Assembly: GCA_012729535.1 (NCBI GenBank)
Contig: JAAYCY010000050.1
Span: 1-56,512 of the forward strand
DNA length: 56,512 nt
Reading direction: 5' to 3'
From: Methanomicrobiales archaeon
GTDB lineage: Archaea; Halobacteriota; Methanomicrobia; Methanomicrobiales; Methanospirillaceae
The translations under genes and the position numbers were made by a program. The notes below the pieces were generated by a model that saw nothing but the letters and a program-made list of their open reading frames with translations, was not told the DNA's origin and did not search any database. Shown here one piece after another: positions 1,375-39,663 of the stretch (within the stretch, counting starts at the first letter, position 1; each line of letters begins with the position of its first letter).

Positions 1375-3123
1375 CTAACGGGCAGAAGCTTTGATGAACG
1401 AACGTGTGGGATGAATCTCATTAAATGGAACTCGATAAAAGCGCTGATAAAACCGATCTGCTTCAGCTGTGATATCCCATGGGCATTTGTCCGGATGAAA
1501 GGTTTTTGCAAGGAGCATAAGACCCAGTATCCACCTTGGACTGCCAAAATCCCACGATGCAGGCATCTCTAGTACACTATTCTTTTCGATAGCTGGAACA
1601 ATCAGATCATTTTTGACACAATAAGCAACACAAGCCTCTTTTGGAAGAGAAAATAGTCCTGAAATACAGATCCAGTCTGGATTTAGTAGTTTAAATTCTT
1701 CCCGGGTGATATTTATTCCTGGTTTTCCAGTTCGCTTAATCATCCGGTTTACCGGGTTTCCTCCGGCAGTTTCCACAAGATGGTTTTCAAATCTTCCTCC
1801 GTTCAGGGAAAATACCGGGTATCCCATGGTATACAGGACACGAGGCTTTTCTGCTCCGGAAACAGCAGTGGTAACCCGGTCAGTCATCTCTTTGAGAACT
1901 AAGATTAACTCTTCACCTTTCTCTCTTCGATCAACCAGGCCGGCAACCTCAGTAATTATGTCATAATATGAAGATATTTTCTGGATACGCTCATGTATTG
2001 AGTTGATTCCTCCTTCAGCTAGAAAAGAACGCCAAAGTCCTGGAGCACAGGTTGGATCATCCACACCCAGACAGGATACGACTCCCTGGATAAATTCAAG
2101 AGCACGGGTAGGTCTGTATCCACCATCCATGCCCTCTTCTTCATACCGCTCGTGAGATATCTGTCCGGTTAATGGAAGCTGGTACCCACATCGACAACTT
2201 CCATTTTCATTGAATGATACCGGTCTGCATCCCATAGGGCCGAACATTTCCCTCCTCGCCAATATTTCCCGACAATCCGGACAGATGGTATCAAGGCAGG
2301 AGGTTCCGGGAGAATTAAACAGGTACACATGAGGTGCAAATTCGCGTATCCTGTTACAAAGCTCTTCGGAATCAGGAATGGGTGGTTCATATTCCTGTCC
2401 AAGATCTCCAAATGCCATACATCGCATTATCTGAATCGGAATGTCATCAGATATTGAGACAATCTCCCGTGCCTCCCGGAGCAGGTCTTCAGCAAGGCCG
2501 GTTGCATGCATGAGGGCAACTTCAACGTGAACACCGCTTGAAAAGAGTTTTTTTATGTTATCAATAACGATATTTCGGTTAATAATTCCACATTGTTTGA
2601 GGTTATCCGGATTAATTCCCTTAAGCCCGATATTTATCATATCAAGAACCGGAAGCAGAAGTTGCAGGGTATAGTCGGAAAAGTACCCGTTTGATGAACA
2701 AGCAACAAACATTCCTCTCTCTTTTGCAAGGGTTGCCACCCTGAGAAAAGATGGAAGAGAGACGGTAGGTTCATTCAGGCAGAAGATAATCCCCTGGCAT
2801 GCATCCTTTTCAGCCTGTTCAATAATTTTTTCTGCACTACAATGGCGAAGACCGGTTCCAATGGTCTCCGGAGTCCGGACAAGGACCTCAGAAACACAAC
2901 CAGGACAGTTCAGGTTGCATCCTACTGTGCTGATCTGAAGGGCTTTTGCCTTTGGCCAGCCATGGACAAATGGGATGGTTTCAATTGAGACTGGGGTTAC
3001 AATAAGCCACTGGTCCGGGAACCTCTCAACAATTTCATGATTGGTTGAGGTATACATGACACATCTGCCGATCCCACCTTCGGGGATCTGGCAATGGTGC
3101 GGACAATATGGACACTGAGTCAT
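1375..3123 (-). CDS. Radical SAM enzyme fused to the C-terminal lobe of a substrate-binding protein (paralog 1)
   Basis: A 582-residue protein in three parts. The N-terminus has a Cys cluster (C4, C7, C11, C21) as in PflA-like enzymes of the AmmeMemoRadiSam type. The radical SAM core follows, with the [4Fe-4S] motif GCNLNCPGC (C69, C73, C76), NEPTVSLPSF and GLKG. Next comes a second Cys pair set (CPDC, then CRCGY). From about residue 390 the sequence stops resembling an enzyme and matches the SBPs of this window: YYDIITEVAGLVDRREKG aligns with the helix joining SBP lobes, then RVLYTMG, NPDWICISG and LLAKTFHPDK match the C-terminal lobe. There is no signal peptide, so it is cytoplasmic. It overlaps the upstream methyltransferase by 4 bases (ATGA). 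Substrate unknown. The domain fusion is seen, the role in handling the SBP ligand is inferred. Confidence 0.85.
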   Translation of the reverse strand: MTQCPYCPHHCQIPEGGIGRCVMYTSTNHEIVERFPDQWLIVTPVSIETIPFVHGWPKAKALQISTVGCNLNCPGCVSEVLVRTPETIGTGLRHCSAEKIIEQAEKDACQGIIFCLNEPTVSLPSFLRVATLAKERGMFVACSSNGYFSDYTLQLLLPVLDMINIGLKGINPDNLKQCGIINRNIVIDNIKKLFSSGVHVEVALMHATGLAEDLLREAREIVSISDDIPIQIMRCMAFGDLGQEYEPPIPDSEELCNRIREFAPHVYLFNSPGTSCLDTICPDCREILARREMFGPMGCRPVSFNENGSCRCGYQLPLTGQISHERYEEEGMDGGYRPTRALEFIQGVVSCLGVDDPTCAPGLWRSFLAEGGINSIHERIQKISSYYDIITEVAGLVDRREKGEELILVLKEMTDRVTTAVSGAEKPRVLYTMGYPVFSLNGGRFENHLVETAGGNPVNRMIKRTGKPGINITREEFKLLNPDWICISGLFSLPKEACVAYCVKNDLIVPAIEKNSVLEMPASWDFGSPRWILGLMLLAKTFHPDKCPWDITAEADRFYQRFYRVPFNEIHPTRSFIKASAR

Positions 3124-3764
3124 GTACGCTCCATCATAAGCCAGAACCCTGATTCATCATTGATAATCGAATATTTTTGAATACCCGCCTCCTTAAGGGC
3201 TGAGGAAACCACTTCAGGAGAACGGGATTTTATCCGGTCTTTCATAGCGTTTTCAAAATCAGGTTCCTTTTCTTTCATCTTTGAGACGATCTGTTTTTTG
3301 AGGGCACTATTCCCAAACCCTCCCCCGATGTATGTAGTTCCACCAGGCTTTAACACCCGGTATATCTCTTTTAAGCTACATGGCAGGTCTTCCCAGAAGA
3401 ACCAGGAACCCCTGCTGATAACCAGGTCAAAAGTTTCATCATCAAATGGGATGTCACAAACATCTCCCTGTGTGGGTATGACCCTTCCTGAAAGTCCTTT
3501 TTCTTTGATCTTTTCAATACATGTCTGAATCATATCCTGTGAAATGTCTAGTCCATGCACGGTGCATTCGGATTCGGTTGCGAGAGCGATACCAAGATGT
3601 CCCGGACCGCAGCCGACATCAAGGGCTTTTCCTTTACGAATCCCGGTTTTTTTAACAATCTGGTTGGCAATTATCGGGTAAATCGGAGCAAATACTGTAT
3701 CTGCAACCTTCAAAAAACCTTTGGTATCTTTTTTGCCCATTATCTTACAGCTATTGTTTTTCAT
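3120..3764 (-). CDS. SAM-dependent methyltransferase, class I (copy A)
   Basis: A 214-residue Rossmann-fold methyltransferase. Motif I is LDVGCGPGHLG near residue 50, followed by an acidic end of beta-2 (GLDIS), a GDVCDIPF segment and LKPGG, the usual signature of small-molecule methyltransferases. ATG at 3764 has GAAGGA a few bases upstream. The stop overlaps the start of the radical SAM gene, so the two are translationally coupled. It lies directly after the SBP2 remnant. Its near twin at 23539-24183 is also intact, making this the only gene of the duplicated block that survived in both copies. That argues for a required function. The acceptor substrate is unknown. Confidence 0.9.
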   Translation of the reverse strand: MKNNSCKIMGKKDTKGFLKVADTVFAPIYPIIANQIVKKTGIRKGKALDVGCGPGHLGIALATESECTVHGLDISQDMIQTCIEKIKEKGLSGRVIPTQGDVCDIPFDDETFDLVISRGSWFFWEDLPCSLKEIYRVLKPGGTTYIGGGFGNSALKKQIVSKMKEKEPDFENAMKDRIKSRSPEVVSSALKEAGIQKYSIINDESGFWLMMERT

Positions 3765-3770
3765 TTTCCT

Positions 3771-4159
3771 TCAATCACTCTGTTTAATTATTCTCCGGAA
3801 TCTTTTAATAAGTCCATCAAGTTGTGCCTGTGTCAGGGAACTTTCATAAAACGAAGTGTAAAAATTCGATACTTTCTCCTTTAATTGTTCGGTTGTGTAT
3901 TTTTCAGGATACAGGGTGTGCAGCATCCAGTACAGGCCGGGGATCTGGTTAGTTCCCGGTAACCGGTCAAACCATGAGAACGGTGTAAGGGGAACTGTAT
4001 ACACGTTTCCGGATTGTACTGCAGGAACATGGTGAGTTCTCTTCCAAGAGCATCAGTTATGGTCCGCTCTGCCGATGTTGTTTCTGCAGAAACCAGGGAA
4101 CTGCAAAAGATACCGATAAGCAATCCTATAAATGTCAACGATAATCTTTTTTTGATCAT
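3771..4159 (-). pseudogene. Remnant of substrate-binding protein (copy A of SBP2)
   Basis: The signal peptide and first mature residues (ATG at 4159, through DALGRELT) are joined to the last ~75 codons (MYTVPLTPFSWFDRLPGTNQ onward), and about 700 bases in between are missing compared with 24198-25280. The join lies near 4030, where the sequences flanking the deletion share only a couple of bases, and the two halves are in different frames. Seen directly by comparison with the intact copy. The remnant still sits immediately before the methyltransferase, preserving the ancestral order SBP-methyltransferase-radical SAM. Confidence 0.92.
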
Positions 4160-4314
4160 GCGATCTCCTTATCTCATGGAAATAAAATTTGATTAACCTA
4201 ATAAATTAGTATAGTCTATTAAATAAAAATAGTGATTTTACTCTGATGTTAGGTTATCTCCATGGATGTATGAAAAAAAAGAGTTCAGTGAGTACTTTAT
4301 AATCCCTGATATAT

Positions 4315-4909
4315 TTGGATATCATGATGGTAATGGTATCGGTAATTTGTCCGGGGAGGGTATCTTTTTTTAAGGGAATGATTTCATCTCCGGTCGCGAT
4401 AAGTCCAATCTTTCATTTTTACCTATACAATTCGGATTCCAAAATGCGAAAGTATTGCAATGTCATGGGGGATGATATACTGATCTTTTTGGATAACCAT
4501 CTGGCCTTTCATCGCATCAGACCCTTTTTGTGACATTATAGTGGGGAAATACAAAAGATCTGATAATCCAGTGATCCGGACCTTTTTCTTGGATTTCTTC
4601 ATCAGAGACTACCGCGTCGTATCCTTCCGGCATGGGAAGCCCTACACTGACTCTTATGCCTTCAATCAGACGAGGGTGTATTTATGAGGCACCTTTGGTA
4701 TTTTTACTCTGGATTGCAATGCCATCTATTCCGGCAAGTGGCAGAGGGGGTATGGGGCGTTGAGAGAATACCGGTTCGGCCAGGATATATCCTTTGGCAT
4801 CTTTTACTGGAATATTTTTCGTTTGCAAAGTGTGCTGGAAAGAAGACAATATGATTTTTTGAGCCTTTTTCATAGGAATAAGCGTGTCAGGATGGAAAGT
4901 TTTTGGCAT
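4315..4909 (-). pseudogene. Remnant of moeA (molybdenum insertion into molybdopterin)
   Basis: Pieces in several frames match the intact moeA at 27732-28913: the start region (MPKTFHPDTLIPMKKAQKII), then GLPMPEGYDAVVSDEEI, then IGLIATGDEIIPLKK. The conserved C-terminal molybdopterin-binding half with GGSSAG is missing. The order of the pieces is colinear with the intact gene, so this is a decayed duplicate and not a chance match. It lies upstream of, and divergent from, mop at 5133. Confidence 0.85.
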
Positions 4910-5070
4910 GATAATTTACAAAATATGATTTAATTAGTTCACAAAAATAAAAAGGTATCTTCTTCATTCATTGATGAATCATAAGAGAGGGTTATATGTT
5001 GAATCAATATGTTTATATCAGGTACCTATTATGAGATCATTAAAATGAAACATTCTAACAGCCAGAAAAA

Positions 5071-5080
5071 TAATTATATA
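5071..5080 (+). promoter_or_regulatory. TATA-like box of mop1
   Basis: TAATTATATA starts 62 bases before the mop start codon. The second mop gene has a similar A+T box (14963-14975) starting exactly 62 bases before its ATG, which supports both as archaeal promoters. Confidence 0.45.
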
Positions 5081-5132
5081 GGTAATCTCCCCTTCCGGAT
5101 TGGCTTGTGTACATAAACGGAGAAATTCAATC

Positions 5133-5342
5133 ATGAAAATTAGTGCAAGAAATGCTCTCAAAGGAACAGTTAAATCTATAACAACCGGCCCTATTAATGC
5201 TGAAATTCTCATCGATATCGGTGGTGGAAATCTCATCACTTCAATAATCACTCATAAGTCCGTTGATAGTCTGGGCCTTACAGAAGGAAAATCGGTTTAT
5301 GCAATAGTTAAAGCAAGTGAAGTTTTGGTTGCCGTTGATTAA
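5133..5342 (+). CDS. mop: Molbindin (single TOBE/Mop domain)
   Basis: A 69-residue protein starting MKISARN and containing the Mop core LKGTVKSITTGP, EILIDIGGG and LGLTEGKSVYAIVKASEV. Molbindins assemble into oligomers that bind molybdate or tungstate oxyanions in the cytoplasm and buffer or sense them. The ATG at 5133 is chosen because GGAG lies 11 bases before it; an upstream in-frame TTG at 5100 has no such site. It precedes modBC on the same strand, separated by 183 bases without a gene. A close paralog is at 15025. Assignment is firm from length and motifs. Mo versus W preference cannot be told. Confidence 0.93.
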   Translation: MKISARNALKGTVKSITTGPINAEILIDIGGGNLITSIITHKSVDSLGLTEGKSVYAIVKASEVLVAVD

Positions 5343-5525
5343 TCACTAAAAAAAGTAACCTCTTTTTTCTAAATCGGTGAAAAATAAATAGCAGTTCGTG
5401 TTTTTTAGTTTTTCTCGCTCAAATTTGGTGGAATAAAAATAGTAGATTATCATAATCAATAAACTCAAATATGTGTATTCATGAATGGTACTTCAGAAAA
5501 ATCTTAAACTCCGGGTAGTCTGACA

Positions 5526-6347
5526 ATGAGTTTTACACAAAAAGGAACAAGGAATTCAAAAAAGTTGAAAACAACCATTGCTATTATTATTTTTGCCCTC
5601 ATTATTATCATTACCATTCTTTTTTTTACTCTCCCACTATTCTCCCTCCTTCTTCGGATTTCACCTGAAGATTTTATTGCTGCAATCCTTGATCCGGATG
5701 TCAATAACGCCATAATGCTCTCACTTATTACGGCAGCGATGGCAACAACGATTATCGTACTCCTTGGGACACCAATAGCCTATCTGAATGCAAGATATGA
5801 ATATCGTGGAAGAAATTTTGTTGAAACGCTGCTTGACCTGCCAATTGTTCTTCCTCCGTCCGTTGCCGGTCTTGCACTACTGGTTCTTTTTGGCAGGCGT
5901 GGGCTGATTGGAGGATTTCTCAATGATATCGGGATTACCATTATATTTACCACATTTGCAGTAGTGCTGGCCCAGGTATTTGTTGCAGGACCACTCTATA
6001 TCAGGCAGGCAAAAACTGCATTTGCAATGGTAGACCGGGTGTATGAAAATGCAGCCCGGACTCTTGGTGCCGGCCCGTTTGTAACGTTCGTTAAAGTTAC
6101 GATTCCCCTTGCGTGGACCGGACTTGTTTCCGGAGTAATTTTAGGATTTGCCCGGGGAATAGGGGAGTTTGGAGCAACTATCATGGTTGCCGGAAATCTG
6201 CCAGGAAAGACACAGACCATGCCACTTGCAATTTACGGGATGATGCAAAGTGATCTTACGGCGTCTATTGCCCTTTCAATAGTTCTTATTGCGATGTCGT
6301 GTATTATCCTCATCATCATCAGAATCCTTTCGGGGAGGTCGTCCTGA
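5526..6347 (+). CDS. modB: Molybdate/tungstate ABC transporter permease
   Basis: A 273-residue inner-membrane permease with a long first hydrophobic segment (residues ~17-45) and further segments spaced as in the ModB/WtpB/CysT family. The EAA-like cytoplasmic loop that contacts the ATPase is visible as AARTLGAGPFVTFVKVTIPLA, followed by GFARGIGEFGATIMVAG, the classic ModB stretch. The stop codon overlaps the ATG of modC (TGATG), so the two are translated together. The matching receptor gene, modA, is not adjacent but 8-9 kb downstream on the same strand. Tungstate rather than molybdate as substrate is possible. Confidence 0.93.
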   Translation: MSFTQKGTRNSKKLKTTIAIIIFALIIIITILFFTLPLFSLLLRISPEDFIAAILDPDVNNAIMLSLITAAMATTIIVLLGTPIAYLNARYEYRGRNFVETLLDLPIVLPPSVAGLALLVLFGRRGLIGGFLNDIGITIIFTTFAVVLAQVFVAGPLYIRQAKTAFAMVDRVYENAARTLGAGPFVTFVKVTIPLAWTGLVSGVILGFARGIGEFGATIMVAGNLPGKTQTMPLAIYGMMQSDLTASIALSIVLIAMSCIILIIIRILSGRSS

Positions 6348-7099
6348 TGCTTAACGCAACTCTGATAAAGAAATTACGGGATTTTGAACTGGATATTGAT
6401 TTATCGGTTAATGACGGAGAGGTCATGGTTCTTCTTGGAGAGAACGGGTCAGGAAAGTCAACGGTATTAAATCTCCTTTCCGGGCTGTTGGTTCCGGATG
6501 AAGGGAATATCATTCTGAATAATATTGAATTATTTTCCAGCGAAAAAGGGATCTTCGTTCCGCCTGAAGAGCGTAATATCGGGTATGTTTTTCAAAACTA
6601 TGCCCTGTTTCCCCACATGACCGTTTTTGATAATATCTCGTTCGGACTTCGGATGCGAAGGATTCCTAAAAATCAGTTTAACGAGGAAGTGGATCGTTTT
6701 CTCGAGGATTTAGGGATTGCGCATGTGAAATGCGAACGGGTTACCAATCTTTCCGGAGGACAACGACAACGAGTGGCTCTTGCACGTGCGTTAATTATCC
6801 GGCCACATCTTCTTTTGCTTGATGAACCTCTTACAGCATTAGATCAGTCGGCAAGAGAAAAGATAAGGCTTGAACTCCGGACACAATTAGTAAACAGTAA
6901 TCAGCCTTCGATTCTGGTTACTCATTCACTTAAGGATGCAAGAATTATTGGGGATAAAGTCATGATGCTGGAAAAAGGAAAGGTTATCTGGAGTGGAAAA
7001 GCCAGTGATTTGAAGTCATTATCAACGATACCTGACGATTCAGCAGTTAATTTCGTATCAGAAGAATATATCAGTTTTTCAGGAATTGCAATTGATTAG
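6347..7099 (+). CDS. modC: Molybdate/tungstate ABC transporter ATP-binding protein
   Basis: A 250-residue ABC ATPase. Walker A is GENGSGKST, the signature is LSGGQRQRVALARAL, Walker B is LLLLDEPLTALD, and the H-loop is VTHS. The start at 6347 (MLNATLIKK) is preferred over an in-frame codon at 6299 because GGGGAGG lies 8 bases upstream and the ATG overlaps the modB stop. No C-terminal TOBE domain is present, unlike long ModC proteins; two separate mop genes in the window may supply that oxyanion-binding module. It energises import through ModB. Confidence 0.93.
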   Translation: MLNATLIKKLRDFELDIDLSVNDGEVMVLLGENGSGKSTVLNLLSGLLVPDEGNIILNNIELFSSEKGIFVPPEERNIGYVFQNYALFPHMTVFDNISFGLRMRRIPKNQFNEEVDRFLEDLGIAHVKCERVTNLSGGQRQRVALARALIIRPHLLLLDEPLTALDQSAREKIRLELRTQLVNSNQPSILVTHSLKDARIIGDKVMMLEKGKVIWSGKASDLKSLSTIPDDSAVNFVSEEYISFSGIAID

Positions 7100-7259
7100 A
7101 GAATATAAACACAGATATGGTCTAAAAGAAGATCTGAAATCTACTGAATTATCAGTGTTTACGTTTTTTTGAATGAGAAACACATTGTTGATTTACTTGT
7201 AAATTAATAAGTACTAATTACTATCCCCATATCCGGGAAAGGATTTCTTTTGGGGAAAA

Positions 7260-8972
7260 ATGGAAGAACAATATATGAAATGCTCTTTTTGTGAACGTAT
7301 GTGCGATATTCCTGAAGATATGAATGGCTATTGCAGGATGTACAGCAACAAACTCGGAGTGATAACAGAAAATTACCCTGATTCATACCTCAATGTATAC
7401 CCGGTCTCAAGTGAATCCATTCCACTTCTCCATTTTTACCCTAATGGAGCTTTCCTGCTAATCAGTACTATCGGATGTAATTTTGCATGTGAAGGATGTT
7501 ATTCAGAATTTCAGACAACACGCCCCGGAACATTACAGAAAGTGCTCACACCCTATAGTCCTGATGATATTCTTGGCCTTGCACGGGAGAGTAATTGTAT
7601 CGGAATCACGTTTTGTCTTAATGAACCAACGGTTTCCCTGCCCTCGTTTCTCCGGGTAGCAAAGGCGGCTAAAAAGGAGGGGTTGCTTGTTGGCTGTTCC
7701 AGTAATGGATACATGACCAAGGAAACACTGGAAAGAATAATCCCCTTCCTGGATTTTGTCAATATTGGTTTGAAAGGTTCAACAGATGATCGGTACCGGG
7801 AATGTGGTGTTCTTTGTGCCGATCCGGTCTATCGAAATGCCAGGATCCTGCATGAAGCCGGGGTGTGGATTGAAATCTCAACCATGTACCTGAACAATAG
7901 AGAAGACGAAGTTATCGGGGCTGCAAACCGTATTCGGGAAATATCTCCGACTATCCCTTTTCAGGTTATGCGGTTTATGTCACCGAATGAGGATCTCAAG
8001 GAACTTTCACCTGATCGGATACAGGGAGAAAACCTCTGTCTACGATTGCGTCAAATCCTTGATCATGTGTACCTCTTTAATACTCCGGCAACAACAGAAC
8101 TGGATTCCAGGTGCCCGATATGTAATGAAATAATTATTCACCGGGTATTTTTTGGTCCGATGGGTGCAAGAGTCCTTTCATGCATGCCAGACGGAGTCTG
8201 TTCATGTGGATATACATATCCCTGTAGGGGAGAAATACTGCCAATTCAGAATGAAGATTCTAAAATTCTCGGAGGATACAGATCAATTCTGGGAGTGAAG
8301 TATATAGCCAGGTATTTCAGGTTACTGGGAGTTACTGAAGATTCAGAGATAGACCAATTCTGCAATATAGTCATTTCTAACGGATATCTCCGGGCAATCC
8401 AGGAAGAAAAAGACAATGTAGACACCTTCATTTCAATGATCCGGTATCTGGCCTCTCTTGCCGGACAGGAAAATCAGGGTGAGCGAATCATATCATTTGT
8501 GACTTCCATTATTCAGGATGTGGAAAACAGGGTCCGGGGTCTTGATAGGCCACGGGTACTGATGGTTTTTTGTCATCCGCTTTCTCCCACATATGCAAGG
8601 AAGTTTGGAAGTATACAGGTTGAAATGGCCGGAGGATTCAGCCTGAATATACAGGAAGACTTTAAGGAGAGTGAGAATGCCGAGTATACGGTTTCTGAAT
8701 TAAACCGACTCAATCCGGATGTCATCCTGGTTTCAGGGCCATTTGCTCCTTCAATTGATACGTTTATTGCTACCTGCAACGAACTTGGCATATCCTGCCG
8801 GGCAATGAATGAAAACAGGGTATATCTCATGGACAGTGATAACATTACGGGGGATTTCGGCTGGCTTATCGGAATTTTGGATATAGCAAACCTTCTCCAT
8901 CCGGAGGTGTGTAATTATTCCCTGGAAGAGGAAAAGAAAAGGCTCGATATGAATACAGAATTATCTGGATAA
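7260..8972 (+). CDS. Radical SAM enzyme fused to the C-terminal lobe of a substrate-binding protein (paralog 2)
   Basis: A 570-residue paralog of the gene at 1375-3123 with the same layout. An N-terminal Cys set (C8, C11, C15, C25) is followed by the [4Fe-4S] SAM motif GCNFACEGC (C73, C77, C80), NEPTVSLPSF, NIGLKGS, and a knuckle CPIC...CSCGY near residues 300-325. The last ~190 residues resemble an SBP helix plus C-lobe (RPRVLMVFCHPL, VEMAGGFS, LNPDVILVSG, NLLHPEV). ATG at 7260 is used; an alternative ATG lies at 7275. A methyltransferase gene starts 14 bases downstream, so radical SAM and methyltransferase again form a pair. Cytoplasmic, substrate unknown. Confidence 0.85.
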   Translation: MEEQYMKCSFCERMCDIPEDMNGYCRMYSNKLGVITENYPDSYLNVYPVSSESIPLLHFYPNGAFLLISTIGCNFACEGCYSEFQTTRPGTLQKVLTPYSPDDILGLARESNCIGITFCLNEPTVSLPSFLRVAKAAKKEGLLVGCSSNGYMTKETLERIIPFLDFVNIGLKGSTDDRYRECGVLCADPVYRNARILHEAGVWIEISTMYLNNREDEVIGAANRIREISPTIPFQVMRFMSPNEDLKELSPDRIQGENLCLRLRQILDHVYLFNTPATTELDSRCPICNEIIIHRVFFGPMGARVLSCMPDGVCSCGYTYPCRGEILPIQNEDSKILGGYRSILGVKYIARYFRLLGVTEDSEIDQFCNIVISNGYLRAIQEEKDNVDTFISMIRYLASLAGQENQGERIISFVTSIIQDVENRVRGLDRPRVLMVFCHPLSPTYARKFGSIQVEMAGGFSLNIQEDFKESENAEYTVSELNRLNPDVILVSGPFAPSIDTFIATCNELGISCRAMNENRVYLMDSDNITGDFGWLIGILDIANLLHPEVCNYSLEEEKKRLDMNTELSG

Positions 8973-8986
8973 ATTACCCTGAAAAA

Positions 8987-9766
8987 ATGACAAAATTAAC
9001 CGAATCGAATCCTTCTTTTGTTGACACTGAATTTGATTTTACGTCGGTTTTTAATGCCGAAGATTATCTGTATTTTTATGAACAGCATCTGAAACCGGAG
9101 TATACAAAAGAAGAGATCCAGTTTCTCATCCGTGAACTGCTTCTTGAAAAACCTGAAAAAATTCTTGACCTTGCCTGCGGGTATGGACGACATGCAAATT
9201 ATCTTGCCCGCTTTGGACATATTGTCACCGGGGTTGATAATAACCAGGATTTTCTAGATATTGCAGGAAAAGGAGCGAAAGATTCAGGGGTGGATGTCAG
9301 ATATATCTGTGAGGATTCCAGGAAATTCTCGTCTCCGGGTGAATATGATTGTATTATTCATCTCTTTAGTTCCTTTGGTTATTTTCCGGATGAAGAAAAT
9401 GAACTGGTAATACGAAATATCGCCGTTTCTCTCAATCCCGGTGGAAGGTTCTGTCTTGATATTCTAAACCGGGATGCATTTGTAAATGATTTTCCACAAT
9501 ATTCGGTTCTTGAAAAGAATGGAGATTTTATGATTGATCAGAACCGGTTCGAACCGCTCTCCGGAAGGTTGTATAATTCCCGTATCATCATCCGGGATGG
9601 AAAGAGAAAAGATACTCCTTTCTTCCTTCGACTCTATAATCCAACTGAAATTATTTCCCTTCTGAAACAGGAGGGACTGGTCCTGAAAAAGGTCTATGGC
9701 AATTGGGATAGCAAACCCTTTGATAGTACTTCAAAGAGAATGATCCTGATCGCTGAAAAACAATAA
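8987..9766 (+). CDS. SAM-dependent methyltransferase, class I
   Basis: A 259-residue methyltransferase with motif I LDLACGYGRH near residue 60, then GVDNN at the end of strand 2, HLFSSFGYF around motif IV, and LNPGGRFCLDI. Beyond the core it has a C-terminal extension rich in beta-strand (SGRLYNSRIIIRDGKRK) typical of the family with a small inserted sheet. It follows the radical SAM gene with 14 bases between, most likely one transcription unit, and converges on the methyltransferase at 9796. It is not closely similar to the copy A/B methyltransferases. Substrate unknown. Confidence 0.85.
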   Translation: MTKLTESNPSFVDTEFDFTSVFNAEDYLYFYEQHLKPEYTKEEIQFLIRELLLEKPEKILDLACGYGRHANYLARFGHIVTGVDNNQDFLDIAGKGAKDSGVDVRYICEDSRKFSSPGEYDCIIHLFSSFGYFPDEENELVIRNIAVSLNPGGRFCLDILNRDAFVNDFPQYSVLEKNGDFMIDQNRFEPLSGRLYNSRIIIRDGKRKDTPFFLRLYNPTEIISLLKQEGLVLKKVYGNWDSKPFDSTSKRMILIAEKQ

Positions 9767-9795
9767 TACTACCCTGAATAAAAGAGAAATGGGTG

Positions 9796-10671
9796 CTATT
9801 TTCCGATTTTTTTCCGGTTGTCAAGGGCCCAGGCCATCATTCCCTTGTATGTTTCTGAATGCGTGGTATAGATCCCATTTTCAGAGCAGTTTTTGTAGTA
9901 TTCCATGATTTTATTCCGGTTTTCATCAGATATTTCATGTTTCATTTCCAGATAACCAATTGTACTGTTCGCTGCTTCCTCCCAACTCTGGTTCTGGTCT
10001 TCAGTTTTATGATTGATTTTTACTATCGGCTGAAATCCTAAGGTATAAAGGTACATAAAGGGATAAAAAAAACCGGCGGCAAAGAATTCCTGTTCCGGAA
10101 CTTTTTGTAAAATCCTGATGTATATATCGGGTGGAATTTTCACTGGATCCCTCCGTATAAAGTTGCTGTAATAACAATATTTCTTAGAACAGGATATCAT
10201 CCGGTCAAAGGTTTCAACATCCCGTATGCCCGGAGTAAATGATGCAATGACCAAATCAAATTTATTACGAAATTTCATGGTATCAATATCGGCGGTCCAC
10301 CATGAGCACTCGATAGGGCTGATAGAAAGGTCTTCGTTTTCTGCTGTTTCTTTTAGTCTCTCAAGCATTTTGGAGGATATATCCAGTGATGTTACCTTTG
10401 CCCCGGCCCTGGCAAGAGGTAATGTAAGAGATCCGGGACCACAACCGATATCAAGAACGGTGGCACCTTCCGGATTGAAACCCACTTCATCCAGTAGTTT
10501 AAAAAAATCAGCATCTTTTTGCTTTTTTCTTTTTTCTTCCAGATTCTTTCCAAAGCTGTCGGCACGTTTGTTCCATCGTTCTGCCTGTATGTCATCTGAA
10601 AGAAAATTAATTGTGTCTGCAGTGGAATTCCAGCAATTAATCCAGCATTGTACGTTCTCATCCTGTATCAT
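9796..10671 (-). CDS. SAM-dependent methyltransferase, class I
   Basis: A 291-residue protein with LDIGCGPGSLTLPLARAG (motif I) near residue 75 and SLDIS at the end of strand 2, preceded by a helical N-terminal cap of ~65 residues. Its closest relative in the window is the gene at 26755-27573, with which it shares the long N-terminal cap, the C/HSxW segment after strand 3 and a C-terminal region around LYTLGFQP. Together they form a subfamily distinct from the copy A/B methyltransferases. Convergent with 8987-9766, 29 bases apart. Upstream lies a relic of an SBP C-terminus, so an SBP gene once stood here as well. Substrate unknown. Confidence 0.85.
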   Translation of the reverse strand: MIQDENVQCWINCWNSTADTINFLSDDIQAERWNKRADSFGKNLEEKRKKQKDADFFKLLDEVGFNPEGATVLDIGCGPGSLTLPLARAGAKVTSLDISSKMLERLKETAENEDLSISPIECSWWTADIDTMKFRNKFDLVIASFTPGIRDVETFDRMISCSKKYCYYSNFIRRDPVKIPPDIYIRILQKVPEQEFFAAGFFYPFMYLYTLGFQPIVKINHKTEDQNQSWEEAANSTIGYLEMKHEISDENRNKIMEYYKNCSENGIYTTHSETYKGMMAWALDNRKKIGK

Positions 10672-10842
10672 TATTATCTAAAGGTTGCCGTTATTGAGGT
10701 ATAAATTAATTGAAATGATTATTCCTTCAGTTTATTAACCATCATCATTAAACATTTAAGTCCGTTAGGATCACTTGAATATTTTTTTAAAAAAAGGAAT
10801 TGAGATAATCCGGAGAATTGAAGGATTATATTCAGTTTTTAC

Positions 10843-10940
10843 TTAAGACTAGAACCAGTAATAATAGTATTGATCTCATCATCAGTCAGGTCATAATGTA
10901 AGAATTTGGGAGAAAATCCGGTTTGAAAAATATGAGTCCG
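10843..10940 (-). pseudogene. Relic of an SBP C-terminus
   Basis: The minus strand reads FQTGFSPKFLHYDLTDDEIN and then TIITGSSLK before a TAA at 10843-10845. This matches the invariable ending of the SBPs in this window (for example FYGVELSDDEINIIL at 26520-26570). No start or N-terminal part is found. About 30 codons survive. Recognition rests on the short but diagnostic LTDDEIN ending, so confidence is moderate. Confidence 0.6.
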
Positions 10941-10967
10941 TTTTTTTACATAAAAAACAATACCTCA

Positions 10968-11615
10968 TCATATGATTTTTTTTAGTTCCTCTGGATTATG
11001 CAGTATTTTTTCAGGGAATGCTTCACATAGTTCTTCTTTACTTCCATATCCCCAGAGAACACCTATTGATTTGAGACCGTTTTCATGAGCTGCCTGGATA
11101 TCAACTGCACGGTCACCAATCATTATGGCAGTTTTATCAATAATCTCATTTTCAAGGAGGAGCCGGAGTTGATTCGTTTTTTGTATCCCGTCATCCCCTC
11201 CGCTGATAAAAGAAAAGAATGTCAGTAATTGAAAGAGTTTAAGAATTTTCTCTGCGAAATCAACTCTTTTTGAGGTACAGATTCCCATAGGAATATTATT
11301 TGCTATGAGATATTGCAGAGTTCCATATATCTCCGGATAGAGGGTATTTTCAGCATATCCTATCCGGTTGTAATAATCCCGATAATGGCCGATAATATTT
11401 GAAATAAGCTCACTAGAATCAGAATTGATGATTTTTCTCATGATAATGTCAAGAGGTGGTCCAATATATTGAGCAACAGTACTCTTATCCATTTCCGGAT
11501 ATCCAAATGCCCCAATAGCGCAATTCAATGAATGGGTAATGCCGGTTAAAGGATCACTAATAGTTCCATCAAGGTCAAAGACGAGGAAATGATTGATACC
11601 TTTGAAATAATTCAT
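10968..11615 (-). CDS. HAD-superfamily phosphatase (phosphoglycolate phosphatase-like)
   Basis: A cytoplasmic hydrolase of ~215 residues. Motif I is VFDLDGTISDP, with the nucleophilic Asp at about residue 13. Motif II is the Thr of GICTSKR, and motif IV is GDRAVDIQAA with the metal-binding Asp. The helical cap between motifs I and II identifies subfamily I (Gph/PpaX-like). I start it at ATG 11615 (MNYFKGINH) because AAGGGA lies just upstream. A longer frame to 11672 adds 19 residues without a ribosome binding site. Substrate unknown; members hydrolyse phosphoglycolate, nucleotides or sugar phosphates. No strong tie to neighbours. Confidence 0.85.
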   Translation of the reverse strand: MNYFKGINHFLVFDLDGTISDPLTGITHSLNCAIGAFGYPEMDKSTVAQYIGPPLDIIMRKIINSDSSELISNIIGHYRDYYNRIGYAENTLYPEIYGTLQYLIANNIPMGICTSKRVDFAEKILKLFQLLTFFSFISGGDDGIQKTNQLRLLLENEIIDKTAIMIGDRAVDIQAAHENGLKSIGVLWGYGSKEELCEAFPEKILHNPEELKKII

Positions 11616-11717
11616 TTCCCTTAGCAAAATCACTCCCGGAAGGAATGGGACTGTAACTCTATCAATGTTCATAAGAGGTATTCTGTATATCGTTTATTCA
11701 GATACGTAATGGTTCTT

Positions 11718-11940
11718 TTATGAGTATGCCAAGTCAATTTTTTTTCTTATGATGATGACAGGAAGTTCTATATCATCATCCGACTTCGAAAACCCATCCA
11801 GGATAGGTTCTGTCTGAAAAACAGGATGGAAAATTTCCTGCAGTGAACGGTGATAGTAATACGGTTATACCGGTTTAGACCTGATTGCTTCTCCTTCATA
11901 GATGTAGTCAGGTAATACTTATCCGGTCTCGAAAACACGG
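11718..11940 (-). pseudogene. Relic of a methyltransferase C-terminus
   Basis: In one minus-strand frame the sequence reads LPDYIYEGEAIRSKPV, an ochre stop, then PYYYHRSLQEIFHPVFQ and further IELPVIIIRKKI before a TAA at 11718. A YYHRSL...IF segment followed by IP-x-IIIRxR is the usual end of a class I methyltransferase. No motif I is found upstream before the NTPase gene, so only the last third remains, already carrying a stop. Not strongly similar to any methyltransferase in this window. Confidence 0.55.
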
Positions 11941-11978
11941 TTGAAATGTAGAAAAATCAAAATCTCCCCATTACCGGC

Positions 11979-12578
11979 CTATTTACATTTTATTGGCAAA
12001 ATTGATCTGAATTCCCTGATCTCATTTAGAATTTCCGGGATTACTTCAGACTGGGGGACAGAATCAATATCCACGATAACACTCTTTGGATAAGGCCATC
12101 TCTTTAACACATCATCCACGAAACAACTCCGGACAGTCCATATCATTGGAGGATGGTTCATTTCATACAGGAGATCAATACATCCGGCCCACATTACTCC
12201 GTTAAGTTCAAACCTTCCAACTTCATCAATTACCACAAGATCTGGTGTTCCTTCTTTTATTGGGTTGAGAATGGCATTACATCCAAAAGAAATGCCTGAA
12301 TTCCTGAAATAATACCTCCCATGTAATTCAGAATCATGAGTTGGTACTACTGAGCACAGTTCTTCTGACATTCCAGTATAAATATCAATCAGGTCAAATC
12401 CTGAACGAAGACTACCCTGGAAATATCCGGGAGCTACAATGCCACTTATCCGGATATCCTCATTTGAGAGTTTATCAAGAATCTGTTTAAGATAGGTAGT
12501 TTTTCCTTCTCCCTGTTCTCCGGTAATGATAAATAATGGCGAACGTTGGCCGGAAATCGCAGATATATCCTTATTCAT
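11979..12578 (-). CDS. P-loop NTPase, THEP1/DUF2478-like
   Basis: A 199-residue P-loop protein. Walker A is ITGEQGEGKTTYL, at about residues 17-28, and Walker B is PDLVVIDEVGRFEL, the acidic pair followed by GxxEL seen in THEP1-type nucleoside triphosphatases and related DUF2478 proteins, several of which occur in molybdenum-related clusters. GIVAPG after strand 2 is also characteristic. It follows the radical SAM gene at 12604 by 25 bases on the same strand and is likely co-transcribed. It could drive a metal- or cofactor-loading step, but the partner is unknown. Confidence 0.8.
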   Translation of the reverse strand: MNKDISAISGQRSPLFIITGEQGEGKTTYLKQILDKLSNEDIRISGIVAPGYFQGSLRSGFDLIDIYTGMSEELCSVVPTHDSELHGRYYFRNSGISFGCNAILNPIKEGTPDLVVIDEVGRFELNGVMWAGCIDLLYEMNHPPMIWTVRSCFVDDVLKRWPYPKSVIVDIDSVPQSEVIPEILNEIREFRSILPIKCK

Positions 12579-12603
12579 TTTTACTCATACTGATTTTATG
12601 AAA

Positions 12604-14397
12604 TTAATAAGCGGAATCTGCCAGTTGATCTGGAAGAACAATACCATTGTCTCCAGGCAAGTCAGACTCCAGAAGGAAACTCTCAAATAGATTATTTAGT
12701 CGTTCTTCCTCGTCATGAAGAGAATACTGAAAAAGGTCCGGATGCTGAATATTTGCAATTTCCATAAGGCCGATGATCCAGTGTGGAGTGGTGGGCATAT
12801 ACTTTTTATTCAGGGCATATATCCGGTTTTTCTGGATTGCATCAGCGTTAATCCCAATCTTTCTGCAGGTATTGATAAAATCCTGAACCTGGGTTGAGAA
12901 ATGACCAGATATCAGGATTATCTCCGGATTAATGGTATTGAATTCAGATACTGTGTACTCTGCATGTTCCTTCTCATTGTAGTTGATTTCTTTGTTAAGA
13001 CTAATTCCTCCGGCAATTTCCACGAGATTGTTATCAAATTTTTCCGCATACAGGGGGAATAACGGATGGCTCAGGACAATCATGACACGAGGTTTTCGAG
13101 CGATGGAAACCTTTCGGGAGATATCAGAAATGATCAATCGGATATAATTCACAAAAGCAGTTCCCTGGATTTCCCGACCGGATAAATGAGCAAGATAGTT
13201 TACCATCTCGCAGTATGTGTCCGGATTACTTTTTTGTTCCTGTTTGGAGTGAAGATATCCGTTCGCAATTATCGTATTGCAATACGTATCAATCTGGTTT
13301 TTTTCAGTAACTCCCAGTATTTTAAGTATCTCTGCAATAAACCTGACACCCATAATTGAACGGTATCCCCCGAGGACTTCAGGTTCATCCTTTTTAACCG
13401 GGGTGATTTCTCCTATATACGGGAACTTATACCCGCAGGAACATACTCCGTCCTGTTCGCAGGATAGAACCCTGGCTGCCATCGGACCAAAGAAAACCCG
13501 ATGAATAATTACCTTACCGCAGACAGGACAGAGTGAATCAAGCATGGTTGTTGCAACGGTGTTAAACAGGTAAACATGATGAAGATACCGTTGTAACTCG
13601 CGACATAGTTTTTCTCCATCTTCTGTTGATGGCTCCAAAAATCCGAGTTTTTCCCGGTCAGGTGCCATAAAACGCATGACCTGAAGAGGTATATCAGAGG
13701 AGATCCCTTTTATCTGTTCTACTGCCTGGATAACTTCCCTTTCCCGCCCCTTCAGGTACATTATAGAGAGTTCAACCGCTATTCCGGCATCATGAAACAG
13801 CCGGACATTGCGATATACCGGGGAGGCTGAAATAGCACCACATTCCTGATATCTTTCATCAGAATATCCCTTCAGCCCGATGTTGATATAATCAAGATAT
13901 GGAATGAGAGTATTAACCGTATCCTCTGTCATATATCCATTACTTGAACATCCGACAAGAAATCCGGCCTCTTTGGCTGCTTTTGCAACCCGGATAAATG
14001 TAGGCAGGGAAACAGTTGGTTCATTCAGACAAAAGGCAATTCCCCGGCAGTTACCTTTTCGTGCGATATTCAGTATTTCCTCAGGAGTATATTTTATCAA
14101 TGTATCTGATAGCGTTTTATTGCCATATGACTGAAATTCAGAGATACACCCTTCACATGCAAAGTTACAACCGATTGTACTGATAAGAAGGAATCTGTTA
14201 TTCGGATAAAAATGAAGGAGAGGAATGGATTCAGTAGTAACGGGATAAATATTGAGATAACAATCCGGGTATATTTCTGATATTTGCCCGTTTTCATGCC
14301 TGTACATTGAGCATTTTCCGGTCTTGTGTTCCGGGATCTGACACCTGCATTCACAATAGTTACATTGTATTGATATATCTGTCTCTGATTTTTTCAT
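12604..14397 (-). CDS. Radical SAM enzyme fused to the C-terminal lobe of a substrate-binding protein (paralog 3)
   Basis: A 597-residue third paralog, closest to the one at 7260. The N-terminal Cys set is CNYCECRC plus C29, the SAM cluster motif is GCNFACEGC (C77, C81, C84), and the knuckle is CPVC...CSCGY. The C-terminal SBP-like part has RKPRVMIVLSHPL, LVEIAGGISLN, INPEIILISGHFS and MEIANIQHPDLF. The start at ATG 14397 (MKKSETDIS) is preferred because AGGAATT precedes it; a TTG at 14472 would add 25 residues that the paralogs lack. No signal peptide. Unlike paralogs 1 and 2, its neighbour is an NTPase, not a methyltransferase. Confidence 0.85.
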   Translation of the reverse strand: MKKSETDISIQCNYCECRCQIPEHKTGKCSMYRHENGQISEIYPDCYLNIYPVTTESIPLLHFYPNNRFLLISTIGCNFACEGCISEFQSYGNKTLSDTLIKYTPEEILNIARKGNCRGIAFCLNEPTVSLPTFIRVAKAAKEAGFLVGCSSNGYMTEDTVNTLIPYLDYINIGLKGYSDERYQECGAISASPVYRNVRLFHDAGIAVELSIMYLKGREREVIQAVEQIKGISSDIPLQVMRFMAPDREKLGFLEPSTEDGEKLCRELQRYLHHVYLFNTVATTMLDSLCPVCGKVIIHRVFFGPMAARVLSCEQDGVCSCGYKFPYIGEITPVKKDEPEVLGGYRSIMGVRFIAEILKILGVTEKNQIDTYCNTIIANGYLHSKQEQKSNPDTYCEMVNYLAHLSGREIQGTAFVNYIRLIISDISRKVSIARKPRVMIVLSHPLFPLYAEKFDNNLVEIAGGISLNKEINYNEKEHAEYTVSEFNTINPEIILISGHFSTQVQDFINTCRKIGINADAIQKNRIYALNKKYMPTTPHWIIGLMEIANIQHPDLFQYSLHDEEERLNNLFESFLLESDLPGDNGIVLPDQLADSAY

Positions 14398-15234: not shown

Positions 15235-15405
15235 TTATCCTGTTTTTTGTCCGCAATATGATCCTGAATCTTTTTTCAGTATTAAAATTTACATTTCTGT
15301 TGCATATTGCCAATTCTCCTTTAATTATTATGGTTAACTTGCGGGATAAATGATCGGATTTATACAACATTAAATCCCATGATACTTGGGTTTAGGAGTG
15401 TACCT

Positions 15406-16209
15406 ATGAAAACGATTTCATACCTCATGATAGGTCTGGCTTTTCTCCTGCTCTTTATGCAGGCAGGCTGTGTTTTTGCTGAGGAAACCGAGCAGAAAGA
15501 ACTAATGATCTTTGCAGCGGCATCACTGACCGGTGTTGTCGGAGACATTGAAACCATCTTTGAAGAGTCTCATCCGGGAGTGAGTGTTACAACCAACTGT
15601 GACAGTTCAGCGACCCTGGAAACCCAGATAAAAGAGGGTGCATATGCAGATGTATATCTACCGGCAAGTGTTAAGAACATGGACAACCTTGTGAAAGAGG
15701 AGATGATTGATACTGAGTCGGTGACTCTATATGGAACCAATAAGCTTGCAATCATCGTTCCAATTGACAACCCGGCAGAAATTACCGGTCTTGCTGACCT
15801 TGCTAAACCAGGTGTTAAGATAGTCAGTGAGACCTCTGAAGTTCCGGTTAGAAAATATACCGAGCAGGTTCTCAACAAAACCCTGAACAGTACTGAATAT
15901 GGACAGGCATTTGTTGATGCTTTCAGAGCAAATGTTTTTTCAGAAGAGACAAATGTTGCAGGTGCCACAACCAAGGTAGCACTTGGAGAAGCAGATGCAG
16001 GAATCACGTATTATTCAGATGTTACCAAAGATCTTGCAGACAAGATTATAATCATTGATATCCCTGAAGATCTTAATGTAGTTGCCACATATAAGGCAGG
16101 TATTCTTTCAGAGTCAGTGAATGAGGAACTTGCTGATGAATACATCGGCCTGCTCACATCAGAGGAAGGAAAATCAGTATTGAAAGATTATAATTTCAAT
16201 CCTGCTTAA
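15406..16209 (+). CDS. modA: Molybdate/tungstate-binding protein of the ABC transporter
   Basis: A 267-residue extracytoplasmic receptor. The signal peptide (MKTISYLMIGLAFLLLFMQA) has a Cys in GCVF that could be a lipobox. The mature part has LMIFAAASLTGVV with the oxyanion-binding Ser, FEESHPGVSV, DSSATLETQIKEGAYADVYL, and the ModA-type ending VALGEADAGITYYSDV. ATG 15406 follows GGAG by 8 bases; an upstream start at 15379 has no support. It serves the ModBC pair at 5526-7099, from which it is separated by five intact genes and two relics. Specificity for Mo or W is not readable. Confidence 0.92.
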   Translation: MKTISYLMIGLAFLLLFMQAGCVFAEETEQKELMIFAAASLTGVVGDIETIFEESHPGVSVTTNCDSSATLETQIKEGAYADVYLPASVKNMDNLVKEEMIDTESVTLYGTNKLAIIVPIDNPAEITGLADLAKPGVKIVSETSEVPVRKYTEQVLNKTLNSTEYGQAFVDAFRANVFSEETNVAGATTKVALGEADAGITYYSDVTKDLADKIIIIDIPEDLNVVATYKAGILSESVNEELADEYIGLLTSEEGKSVLKDYNFNPA

Positions 16210-18118: not shown

Positions 18119-18976
18119 TCATTCTCTGCTTTTTCTTATCAGAATCTTTTTCGCCGATACTCCAAAGAAATGGTATCCTGATCCTCCCTGCATTATTGCA
18201 GATATGAGGTTATCAGGATCGGTGACTGTTACTCCACCGATGGCAGTAACACCTCGTGCAAATAACCGGTCAGGAATGATACTTATCGTAGGGCCTCCGA
18301 TAATTACCGGCACTCCGGAGGGTATTTTTGAAAGTAGCCCTTCAAGAGTACTAGTTACCATAGTAGCACCAGTCATTACTACTGATCCAGCCTCTGCCAG
18401 AGCTTTGTCCTGTTTTTCAGGTGGTACATAAAATGGGAGTTCATCGTCTCGTAATGCTGCTTTATTCAACTCAAAGATTCGATACGGAATATTTTTTTCT
18501 TTTAGCCGGTGAATAACAGGCCAGAGAGCACCAACTACTATCACCGGTTTTGTGGGATCTTTAGAATCAACGAGATCAAATGCATCTTTGTCATATTCAA
18601 TATTATACCTTTCTTTTTGGCTGATATCGATGTACCATGCAGATAACGCATTAACAATACTGATTATCACTCCTCTTACAAGAGGGGCAGGAGAATCTAT
18701 GTAAGAGAGAATGTCTTTGATCAGAACACCTTCCATTTTTCCGCAATATGGCATTGAACTTGCTGAAGTTGTGCAACATACCGTTTCGGGTATAAGATCA
18801 ATTGGAGTGTAACATATACCTCCGTATCCATTTGATAACTTTACTCCGGTGAAAAAAACTCCAACGGCTACTTTTTCAATGGTAATATCAGAAAAAGGTG
18901 TAGGAAGGTTTTGTGCGAATAATTCAAGGGTTTCTTTCAGGATAAGGTCTTGTTCCGGTTTTTTAATTTCTGTCAT
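18119..18976 (-). CDS. DUF364 protein (putative heavy-metal chelation), copy 1
   Basis: A 285-residue cytoplasmic protein. The N-terminal half (DUF4213-like) has GVFFTGVKLSNGYGGICYTP and IPETVCCTTSASSMPYCGKM; the C-terminal half has VVVGALWPVIHRLKEKNIPY, then VMTGATMVTSTLEGLL, GGPTISIIPDRLFARG and GGSGYHFFGVSAKKILI. The fold of this family combines an enolase-like and a Rossmann-like part, and a heavy-metal chelation role has been proposed from structure. It lies 46 bases downstream of FmdE. A second copy is at 34903-35814 in an operon with SBP7. The Cys-Cys pair in the N-terminal part is shared by both copies and may bind metal. Confidence 0.85.
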   Translation of the reverse strand: MTEIKKPEQDLILKETLELFAQNLPTPFSDITIEKVAVGVFFTGVKLSNGYGGICYTPIDLIPETVCCTTSASSMPYCGKMEGVLIKDILSYIDSPAPLVRGVIISIVNALSAWYIDISQKERYNIEYDKDAFDLVDSKDPTKPVIVVGALWPVIHRLKEKNIPYRIFELNKAALRDDELPFYVPPEKQDKALAEAGSVVMTGATMVTSTLEGLLSKIPSGVPVIIGGPTISIIPDRLFARGVTAIGGVTVTDPDNLISAIMQGGSGYHFFGVSAKKILIRKSRE

Positions 18977-19022
18977 TATTTACTCATTATATTGAGAGAA
19001 ATTTCATTTTCAAAAATTTTGA

Positions 19023-23059: not shown

Positions 23060-23542
23060 TTAACTGGCAGACTCTTTGATGAACGAGCGTGTAGGATGGA
23101 TTTTTTCAAATGGGACTCCATAAAAACGCTGGTAAATACTGTCTGCTTCAGATGTGACATCCCATGAGCATCTTTCCGGATGAAAGGATTTAGCAAGGAG
23201 CATAAGAAAATTCCCAGGCATTCTTCTTCTTTTGCAGGTTTTATAAGTTCTTCTGCACTTTTATGGCGAAGTCCTGTCCCGATTGCTTCAGGAGTACTGG
23301 CAAGAATTTCTGAAACACATCCCGGACAGGAAAGATTACAACCTACCGTACTAATCTGAAGGGATTTTGCCTTTGGCCATCCATGAACAAAAGGAATGGT
23401 CTACACAGACCGGTGTTACAACAAGCCAATGGTCCGGATATCTCTCTATTATCTCATTATTGGATGAAGTATACATGGCACATCTGCCTGTACTTCCTTC
23501 TGAAATGTCACAATGATGCGGACAATAGAGACACTTTGTCAT
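23060..23542 (-). pseudogene. Remnant of the radical SAM-SBP fusion gene (copy B)
   Basis: The first ~110 codons and the last ~50 codons of the gene at 1375-3123 are joined, with about 1.26 kb missing between AAG triplets near 23210. There is also a one-base deletion near 23400, after VVTPV, that shifts the N-terminal part out of frame. The SAM cluster Cys codons are still readable in the shifted frame. It overlaps the methyltransferase stop by 4 bases, exactly as in copy A, so the operon layout predates the duplication. Confidence 0.92.
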
Positions 23543-24183: not shown

Positions 24184-24197
24184 GCTCTTCAATTATC

Positions 24198-39633: not shown

Positions 39634-39663
39634 GCTTTTTGCGTTCCTGTGGGGTGAAAGTGG

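What the first reader, a model, noticed from the sequence alone, without database searches (positions are those of the whole stretch)
1375..14397. Radical SAM enzymes carrying half of a substrate-binding protein
Three intact paralogs (1375-3123, 7260-8972, 12604-14397) join a PflA-like radical SAM domain, with an extra N-terminal Cys cluster and a CPxC...CxCGY knuckle, to ~190 residues that match the inter-lobe helix and C-lobe of the SBPs in the same island. In paralog 1, YYDIITEVAGLVDRREKG aligns with SYDIIGKVFGKEEEAQEF of SBP1, and LLAKTFHPDK with the WLAKTLYPE type block. No leader peptide is present, so an extracytoplasmic receptor fold has been moved into a cytoplasmic enzyme. I know of no described family with this layout. 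The C-lobe may hold the same metal complex that the receptors import, placing it near the radical SAM site.
Basis: partly seen in the sequence, partly recalled or inferred. Interest (0 to 1): 0.85.

Follow-up and report, generated by a model that had tools for sequence, protein, structure and literature searches.

The report
Import-linked radical enzyme with half-receptor
Methane-making archaea and some sulfate-reducing bacteria carry an undescribed radical enzyme whose tail is half of the receptor that normally catches metal complexes outside the cell, usually encoded within a metal-complex importer operon, so it probably works on whatever that importer brings in.

Summary
Three intact genes (1375-3123 minus, 7260-8972 plus, 12604-14397 minus) encode cytosolic PflA-like radical SAM enzymes. 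Their C-termini match only the inter-lobe helix and C-lobe of PF01497 substrate-binding proteins (SBPs). Support: Pfam over threshold in two copies; profile-profile 99.9%, E 4.5e-31; AlphaFold2/Foldseek superposition on SBP 4hn9, rmsd 2.0-2.2 A over ~195 columns. It is not local: 40 of 150 genomes of its order, other archaea, Desulfobacterota relatives and a Clostridium have it. The fusion arose once (SH-aLRT 97-99), so the lobe is an old domain, not a copy of the island's SBPs. It has invariant residues (N459, C502, W531, H543) that neighbouring SBPs lack, and lacks the operon SBPs' WxDRP loop. The recurring operon is SBP, class I methyltransferase, this enzyme, FecCD, FepC. The genome has no glycyl-radical enzyme, so it is not a glycyl-radical activase. 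Best explanation (inferred): it modifies or dismantles the ligand of an imported metal complex, holding substrate on the lobe, as HmuW/ChuW do for heme. Molybdenum/tungsten is favoured as cargo by neighbourhood only. The N-terminal Cys cluster is not extra; AmmeMemoRadiSam radical SAM proteins share it.

The parts
1375..3123 (-). Copy 1 (P0002, 582 aa): radical SAM enzyme with SBP C-lobe, 'canonical' clade (WDFGSPRW loop)
2512..2931 (-). Radical SAM domain of copy 1 (residues 65-204; CxxxCxxC = C69, C73, C76)
1558..1974 (-). SBP half of copy 1: PF01497 positions 93-233 (residues 384-522); fold similarity runs to about residue 574
7260..8972 (+). Copy 2 (P0001, 570 aa): radical SAM enzyme with SBP C-lobe, second clade
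8403..8840 (+). SBP half of copy 2: PF01497 positions 87-234 (residues 382-527)
12604..14397 (-). Copy 3 (P0003, 597 aa): radical SAM enzyme with SBP C-lobe, second clade
12802..13233 (-). SBP half of copy 3: PF01497 positions 87-234 (residues 389-532), 21.3 bits, below the gathering cut-off
3120..3764 (-). Class I SAM methyltransferase upstream of copy 1, overlapping its start codon by 4 bases; this partner recurs across archaea and bacteria
3801..4159 (-). Remnant of the module's SBP: codons 1-44 and 278-355 of the SBP24198 type, middle deleted
24198..25280 (-). Intact SBP of the second SBP-methyltransferase-rSAM module (the operon SBP type, WFDRPP loop)
23539..24192 (-). Methyltransferase of the second module, 69% identical to 3120-3764
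23066..23542 (-). Broken fourth radical SAM/SBP-lobe gene: codons 1-115 (frameshift and stop) and 535-581 remain
36609..37646 (-). FecCD/BtuC-type permease, the only one in the window (four strong ones in the genome)
35832..36608 (-). FepC/BtuD-type ATPase of the same importer
5526..7099 (+). ModB and ModC between copies 1 and 2; the only modB of the genome over the NCBIfam cut-off
15379..16209 (+). ModA
18119..19574 (-). DUF364/DUF4213 protein and FmdE protein

Best explanation
It is a cytosolic radical SAM enzyme (expected to be oxygen-sensitive) that belongs to type II (FecCD/BtuCD-like) import systems for metal complexes. Shown: the PflA-like radical SAM domain, a four-Cys knuckle and an SBP inter-lobe helix plus C-lobe form one old, single-origin protein; its recurring operon is SBP, class I methyltransferase, this enzyme, permease, ATPase, with TonB receptors nearby in Gram-negatives. 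Inferred: the N-lobe is missing and a catalytic barrel is in its place, so the lobe acts as a substrate-holding jaw; the imported complex, or its organic ligand, binds between lobe and barrel; the 5'-deoxyadenosyl radical and the methyltransferase then modify or break the ligand so the metal is released. This would be an anaerobic counterpart of oxidative or reductive metal release, analogous to HmuW/ChuW on heme. Cargo: unknown; a Mo/W complex is my leading guess (about 40% given the mechanism), ahead of Fe, Co or Ni chelates.
For: Fold and profile. Operon: in 44 fusion loci the methyltransferase lies within 1.5 kb in 28; SBP, FepC and FecCD lie within 10 kb in 28, 23 and 21. The bare five-gene order SBP-MTase-enzyme-FecCD-FepC appears in several archaeal families of different orders, so two enzymes and one importer look like the whole unit, which suits ligand processing better than complete chelator synthesis. 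In the loci I read no exporter recurs. TonB receptors lie beside it in Gram-negatives, which implies a large ligand. The lobe is under its own constraint (N459, C502, W531 and H543 at 94-100% in 53 lobes, 0-11% in 47 SBPs), so it is working, not vestigial. No glycyl-radical enzyme in the genome. Precedent: HmuW, a radical SAM enzyme in a heme-uptake operon, frees iron anaerobically (PMC10404700). Mo link: ModA/ModB within 10 kb in 6 of 44 fusion and 4 of 10 sister loci (chance about 2% per locus, P 2e-4 for fusion loci alone and 1e-7 for both together, without phylogenetic correction), besides MoeA, Fwd, FmdE and DUF364. The best function-annotated PDB relative of two island SBPs tested is MolA, a molybdate SBP.
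Against: No substrate or reaction is shown. About a quarter of fusion loci have no importer gene within the sequence fetched (13 of 44). The lobe lacks the operon SBPs' WxDRP loop, so it may not bind what they bind. MolA lacks that loop too, so MolA-likeness may only be at superfamily level. Most Methanosarcina-type loci have no Mo genes nearby. Co-occurrence with nitrogenase is weak (11/22 against 29/128, p 0.01, uncorrected for phylogeny), and this genome has no nifD. HmuW/ChuW are class C enzymes, unrelated in detail.
Confidence: 0.4

Rival explanations
1. It builds the chelator: the radical SAM enzyme and methyltransferases make a metallophore (or finish a pterin- or flavin-like chelator with DUF364), and the lobe recognises the product or its metal complex.
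For: O-methyltransferase/DUF364 modules occur beside it in some loci. The DUF364 structure paper proposes synthesis of a flavin- or pterin-like chelator in Mo/W/V/Fe transport contexts (PMC2954201).
Against: The minimal five-gene operon has no synthetase and no exporter; two enzymes are unlikely to make a metallophore from scratch.
Confidence: 0.25
2. The lobe is a sensor or docking part: it binds the imported ligand or metal as a regulatory signal, or docks the enzyme on another protein, and the radical SAM domain acts on something else (a cofactor or a protein of the Mo/W pathway).
For: A complete PF01497 domain already serves as cytosolic ligand sensor in the Bacillus regulator Btr (general knowledge; NCBIfam NF049932). 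The ligand-side loop differs from that of the SBPs. Some loci have no importer nearby.
Against: Lobe and radical SAM domain have stayed fused since one origin in archaea and bacteria, and the lobe has its own invariant Cys, Trp, His and Asn, which looks catalytic or substrate-binding.
Confidence: 0.2
3. Chelatase-like metal insertion or removal: the lobe, which shares the fold class of chelatases and nitrogenase proteins, binds the metal directly (C502, H543), and the radical SAM domain remodels a tetrapyrrole or cluster ligand.
For: Invariant lobe-specific Cys and His. A NifX/NifU/Mrp cluster stands beside the Clostridium copy.
Against: No metal site was tested; fold class membership is from memory.
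Confidence: 0.1
4. Glycyl-radical-enzyme activase or AmmeMemoRadiSam member with an irrelevant tail.
For: Best fold matches of the barrel are PFL-activating enzymes; best NCBIfam is TIGR04337.
Against: No glycyl-radical enzyme in the genome. TIGR04337 scores are 76-121 bits against a cut-off of 220. The tail is strictly conserved.
Confidence: 0.03

Closest known systems
PFL-activating enzyme / COG1180-type radical SAM (3c8f)
   Same: CxxxCxxC radical SAM barrel, TM 0.71 by target
   Different: No glycyl-radical partner in the genome; extra Cys motifs; SBP lobe at the C-terminus
AmmeMemoRadiSam radical SAM (TIGR04337)
   Same: N-terminal CxxC-x3-C...C cluster and barrel
   Different: Scores far below cut-off; no SBP lobe; different gene context
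PF01497 substrate-binding proteins (4hn9, 4pag, MolA 3psa, IsdE, BtuF)
   Same: Inter-lobe helix and C-lobe fold
   Different: No signal peptide, no N-lobe, enzyme domain instead; lobe-specific invariants, no WxDRP loop
HmuW/ChuW/HutW heme-degrading radical SAM enzymes
   Same: Works-like analogy: radical SAM enzyme encoded in an importer operon of anaerobes (PMC10404700)
   Different: Class C HemN-like family, no SBP lobe; substrate here unknown
Btr-type AraC regulators with a PF01497 sensor domain
   Same: PF01497 domain used in the cytosol (from memory; model seen)
   Different: Whole SBP fold and a DNA-binding domain, not half a fold on an enzyme
MolBCA molybdate importer (H. influenzae)
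   Same: Type II importer; its SBP MolA matches two island SBPs at E 2.7e-21 and 1.6e-26
   Different: No radical SAM enzyme known with it (from memory); MolA lacks the WxDRP loop

Membership tests
Radical SAM superfamily (PF04055) | CxxxCxxC cluster motif and Pfam match over cut-off | tested here: met
   53.5, 53.5, 65.0 bits, cut-off 29.5; C69, C73, C76 at 96% of 53 homologues
Radical SAM superfamily (PF04055) | SAM cleavage at a [4Fe-4S] cluster | not testable with these tools
   needs purified protein
PF01497 substrate-binding protein | Homologous inter-lobe helix and C-lobe | tested here: met
PF01497 substrate-binding protein | Two lobes and a signal peptide or lipoprotein anchor | tested here: not met
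   match starts at profile position 87-93; no hydrophobic N-terminus
AmmeMemoRadiSam radical SAM (TIGR04337) | Score over the curated cut-off of 220 bits | tested here: not met
   76-121 bits
Glycyl-radical-enzyme activase | A glycyl-radical enzyme in the genome | tested here: not met
   PF01228 absent from a 96.8% complete genome
HmuW/ChuW anaerobilin synthase | HemN-like class C sequence | tested here: not met
   no HemN-type model among Pfam/NCBIfam matches
HmuW/ChuW anaerobilin synthase | Encoded with an importer for the substrate | tested here: inconclusive
   encoded with an SBP/FecCD/FepC importer in most loci, but whether that importer carries its substrate is unknown

The most novel reading that the evidence does not exclude
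A new class of anaerobic metal-release enzyme: a receptor half captured once by a radical SAM enzyme lets it grip imported Mo/W (or other) metal complexes in the cytosol and cut or methylate the ligand, so that methanogens and sulfate reducers use a TonB- or SBP-fed metallophore route not yet described.
Probability: 0.3. Interest if true: 0.85.

Novelty: new variant of a known kind. Interest (0 to 1): 0.66.

Why it matters
Metal supply limits methanogens and sulfate reducers, and how strict anaerobes free metals from imported chelates is largely open. A conserved five-gene operon with two SAM-using enzymes and a receptor-derived domain, present in Methanosarcina-type genomes for which genetics exist, makes that directly testable. 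It is also a clear case of half a receptor fold reused inside an enzyme.

Tried and rejected
Riboswitches that would name the cargo: none in the window or in 12 of 13 related loci; L019 was not scanned. Glycyl-radical activase: no partner in the genome. Lobe copied from island SBPs: rejected by trees. AlkP-like identity of the ~380-aa partner of the lobe-less sister enzymes: guessed from sequence, no Pfam support. MolA-likeness as a substrate call: weakened, since MolA lacks the operon SBPs' WxDRP loop. Nitrogenase link: weak. In-frame stops reported for several archaeal copies: for L057 the ORF ends two codons before the end of the match, so it is an end effect; not checked for all. Viral fold library search was started but not collected, as irrelevant.
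Full report
OBSERVATION. Three intact ORFs are at the stated places: 1375-3123 on the minus strand (582 aa, P0002), 7260-8972 on the plus strand (570 aa, P0001), 12604-14397 on the minus strand (597 aa, P0003). Each carries PF04055 Radical_SAM and, at its C-terminus, PF01497 Peripla_BP_2 restricted to profile positions about 87-234 of 235, that is the inter-lobe helix and C-lobe; two copies pass the gathering score and the third has E 2e-4. The same two copies appeared in a blind six-frame PF01497 search of the genome.

Independent tests agree. hhalign of 15 C-terminal regions against seven island SBPs: probability 99.9%, E 4.5e-31, 194 columns. hmmsearch of the C-terminal profile against PDB sequences: SBPs fill the significant hits, best 4ovk 1.7e-16, 4hn9 8.8e-16, 4pag 1e-15. 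AlphaFold2 without templates, from an alignment that held no SBP: pLDDT 86.3, pTM 0.87. Foldseek then finds 4hn9 (E 7.6e-11, rmsd 2.2 over 196 columns) and PFL-activating enzyme 3c8f (E 1e-7). The C-terminus modelled alone matches SBPs only among the 50 hits listed.

CORRECTIONS. The N-terminal Cys cluster is not an extra: TIGR04337, the AmmeMemoRadiSam radical SAM family, covers it. The C281xxC284...C310xC312 knuckle (copy 1 numbering) is real and near-invariant in 53 homologues. The quoted helix alignment is about three residues out of register with the profile alignment. The lobe does not descend from the island's SBPs (below).

DISTRIBUTION AND ORIGIN. One genome scan gave 12 loci with full-length relatives and one with a broken one, in Methanospirillum, Methanoculleus, Clostridium thailandense, Desulfobacter, Solidesulfovibrio, Desulfovibrio and others. 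At E <= 1e-150, 40 of 150 genomes of the window's order have it. It is also in other families of the phylum, in 7 of 297 genomes of a Desulfobacter-centred phylum sample and rarely in Clostridia. In a maximum-likelihood tree of the radical SAM domain all 47 fused rows form one clade (SH-aLRT 99), beside a lobe-less sister group. The lobes form one clade against 47 neighbouring SBPs (SH-aLRT 97). So the half-receptor was captured once and then spread or was inherited. These are quick trees with SH-aLRT only; long branches are flagged in the output.

CONSTRAINT. In 53 lobes P436, N459, C502, W531 and H543 are 94-100% conserved. At the same columns the 47 SBPs have 15%, 0%, 0%, 2% and 11%. Shared scaffold residues (G454, P482, A511, P544) are conserved in both. 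The SBPs of the usual operon carry a W-(F/I)-D-R-P loop in 25 of 25, and the solved 4pag has WTDRP; the lobe lacks it and in the main clade has mostly W-D-F-G-(S/N)-P-R-W there. So the lobe is an active, specialised domain, and identity of its ligand with that of the receptors is not supported by these residues.

OPERON. The recurring order is SBP, class I methyltransferase, this enzyme, FecCD, FepC, seen bare in several archaeal families. In 44 fusion loci the methyltransferase is within 1.5 kb in 28; SBP, FepC and FecCD are within 10 kb in 28, 23 and 21. Gram-negative loci add TonB receptors, with ExbB/ExbD or TonB in some (ExbB/ExbD named from reading). In the window there are two SBP-methyltransferase-rSAM modules, each with one broken part: at 1375-4159 the SBP is a remnant, at 23066-25280 the rSAM gene is a remnant. 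Together they make one complete set. The lobe-less sister enzymes also sit mostly in FecCD/FepC/SBP operons, next to a ~380-aa protein without Pfam match.

MECHANISM. Shown: architecture, conservation, operon. Inferred: cytosolic processing of the imported complex, with the lobe as substrate jaw and the radical SAM barrel plus methyltransferase as chemistry. The precedent is HmuW, a radical SAM enzyme in a heme-uptake operon that frees iron without oxygen (PMC10404700). A glycyl-radical activase role is excluded in this genome, which has no detectable PF01228 (the assembly is 96.8% complete). Complete chelator synthesis is less likely because the minimal operon has only two enzymes and no recurring exporter.

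CARGO. Not known. For Mo/W: ModABC, Mop, MoeA, FmdE, DUF364 and Fwd genes in the window (Mop and Fwd named from reading); ModA/ModB within 10 kb in 6 of 44 fusion and 4 of 10 sister loci, against about 2% expected per locus (not corrected for phylogeny); literature placing DUF364 with Mo/W/V/Fe transport (PMC2954201) and FmdE with metal transporters (PMC2954224); MolA as the best function-annotated PDB relative of two island SBPs, MolBCA being a type II molybdate importer (PMC4031551). Against: most Methanosarcina-type loci show no Mo genes; MolA lacks the WxDRP loop; nitrogenase co-occurrence is weak. No riboswitch was found to settle it.

NOVELTY. No NCBIfam model passes its cut-off, and full-text searches of open papers found no description; most subscription papers were not searchable. 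I call it a new variant of a known kind: a radical SAM enzyme with a new, receptor-derived domain, in a metal-import operon.

Noticed in passing
window 1375-4159 and 23066-25280: Two copies of the SBP-methyltransferase-rSAM module have decayed in complementary ways: one lost its SBP, the other its rSAM gene.
   Followed up: partly
L111, L112, L114, L115, L116, L117, L119: A lobe-less sister radical SAM enzyme (~335 aa) sits in most of these beside FecCD/FepC/SBP genes and next to a conserved ~380-aa protein with no Pfam match; in some the SBP is a two-module protein of ~740 aa.
   Followed up: partly
25 operon SBPs, e.g. window 24198-25280, and PDB 4pag: Operon SBPs share a W-(F/I)-D-R-P loop in 25 of 25, across archaea and Desulfobacterota; 4pag (WTDRP) is a solved relative without a stated ligand.
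   Followed up: partly
window 29110-33855: Four PF01497 SBP genes in tandem beside O-methyltransferase and DUF364 genes; many receptors for one permease in the window.
   Followed up: no
window 37851-45432: Duplicated Fwd (formylmethanofuran dehydrogenase) B and D subunits flanking an O-methyltransferase and FwdC/FwdA; names from reading, not tested by family search.
   Followed up: no
L017 4000-9630: NifU-like, NifX-like and Mrp/MinD-like genes lie just upstream of the Clostridium copy, with ModABC downstream (NifX and Mrp named from reading).
   Followed up: partly
window 45858-47381: 507-aa ORF that reads like a transposase at the edge of the island; not tested.
   Followed up: no
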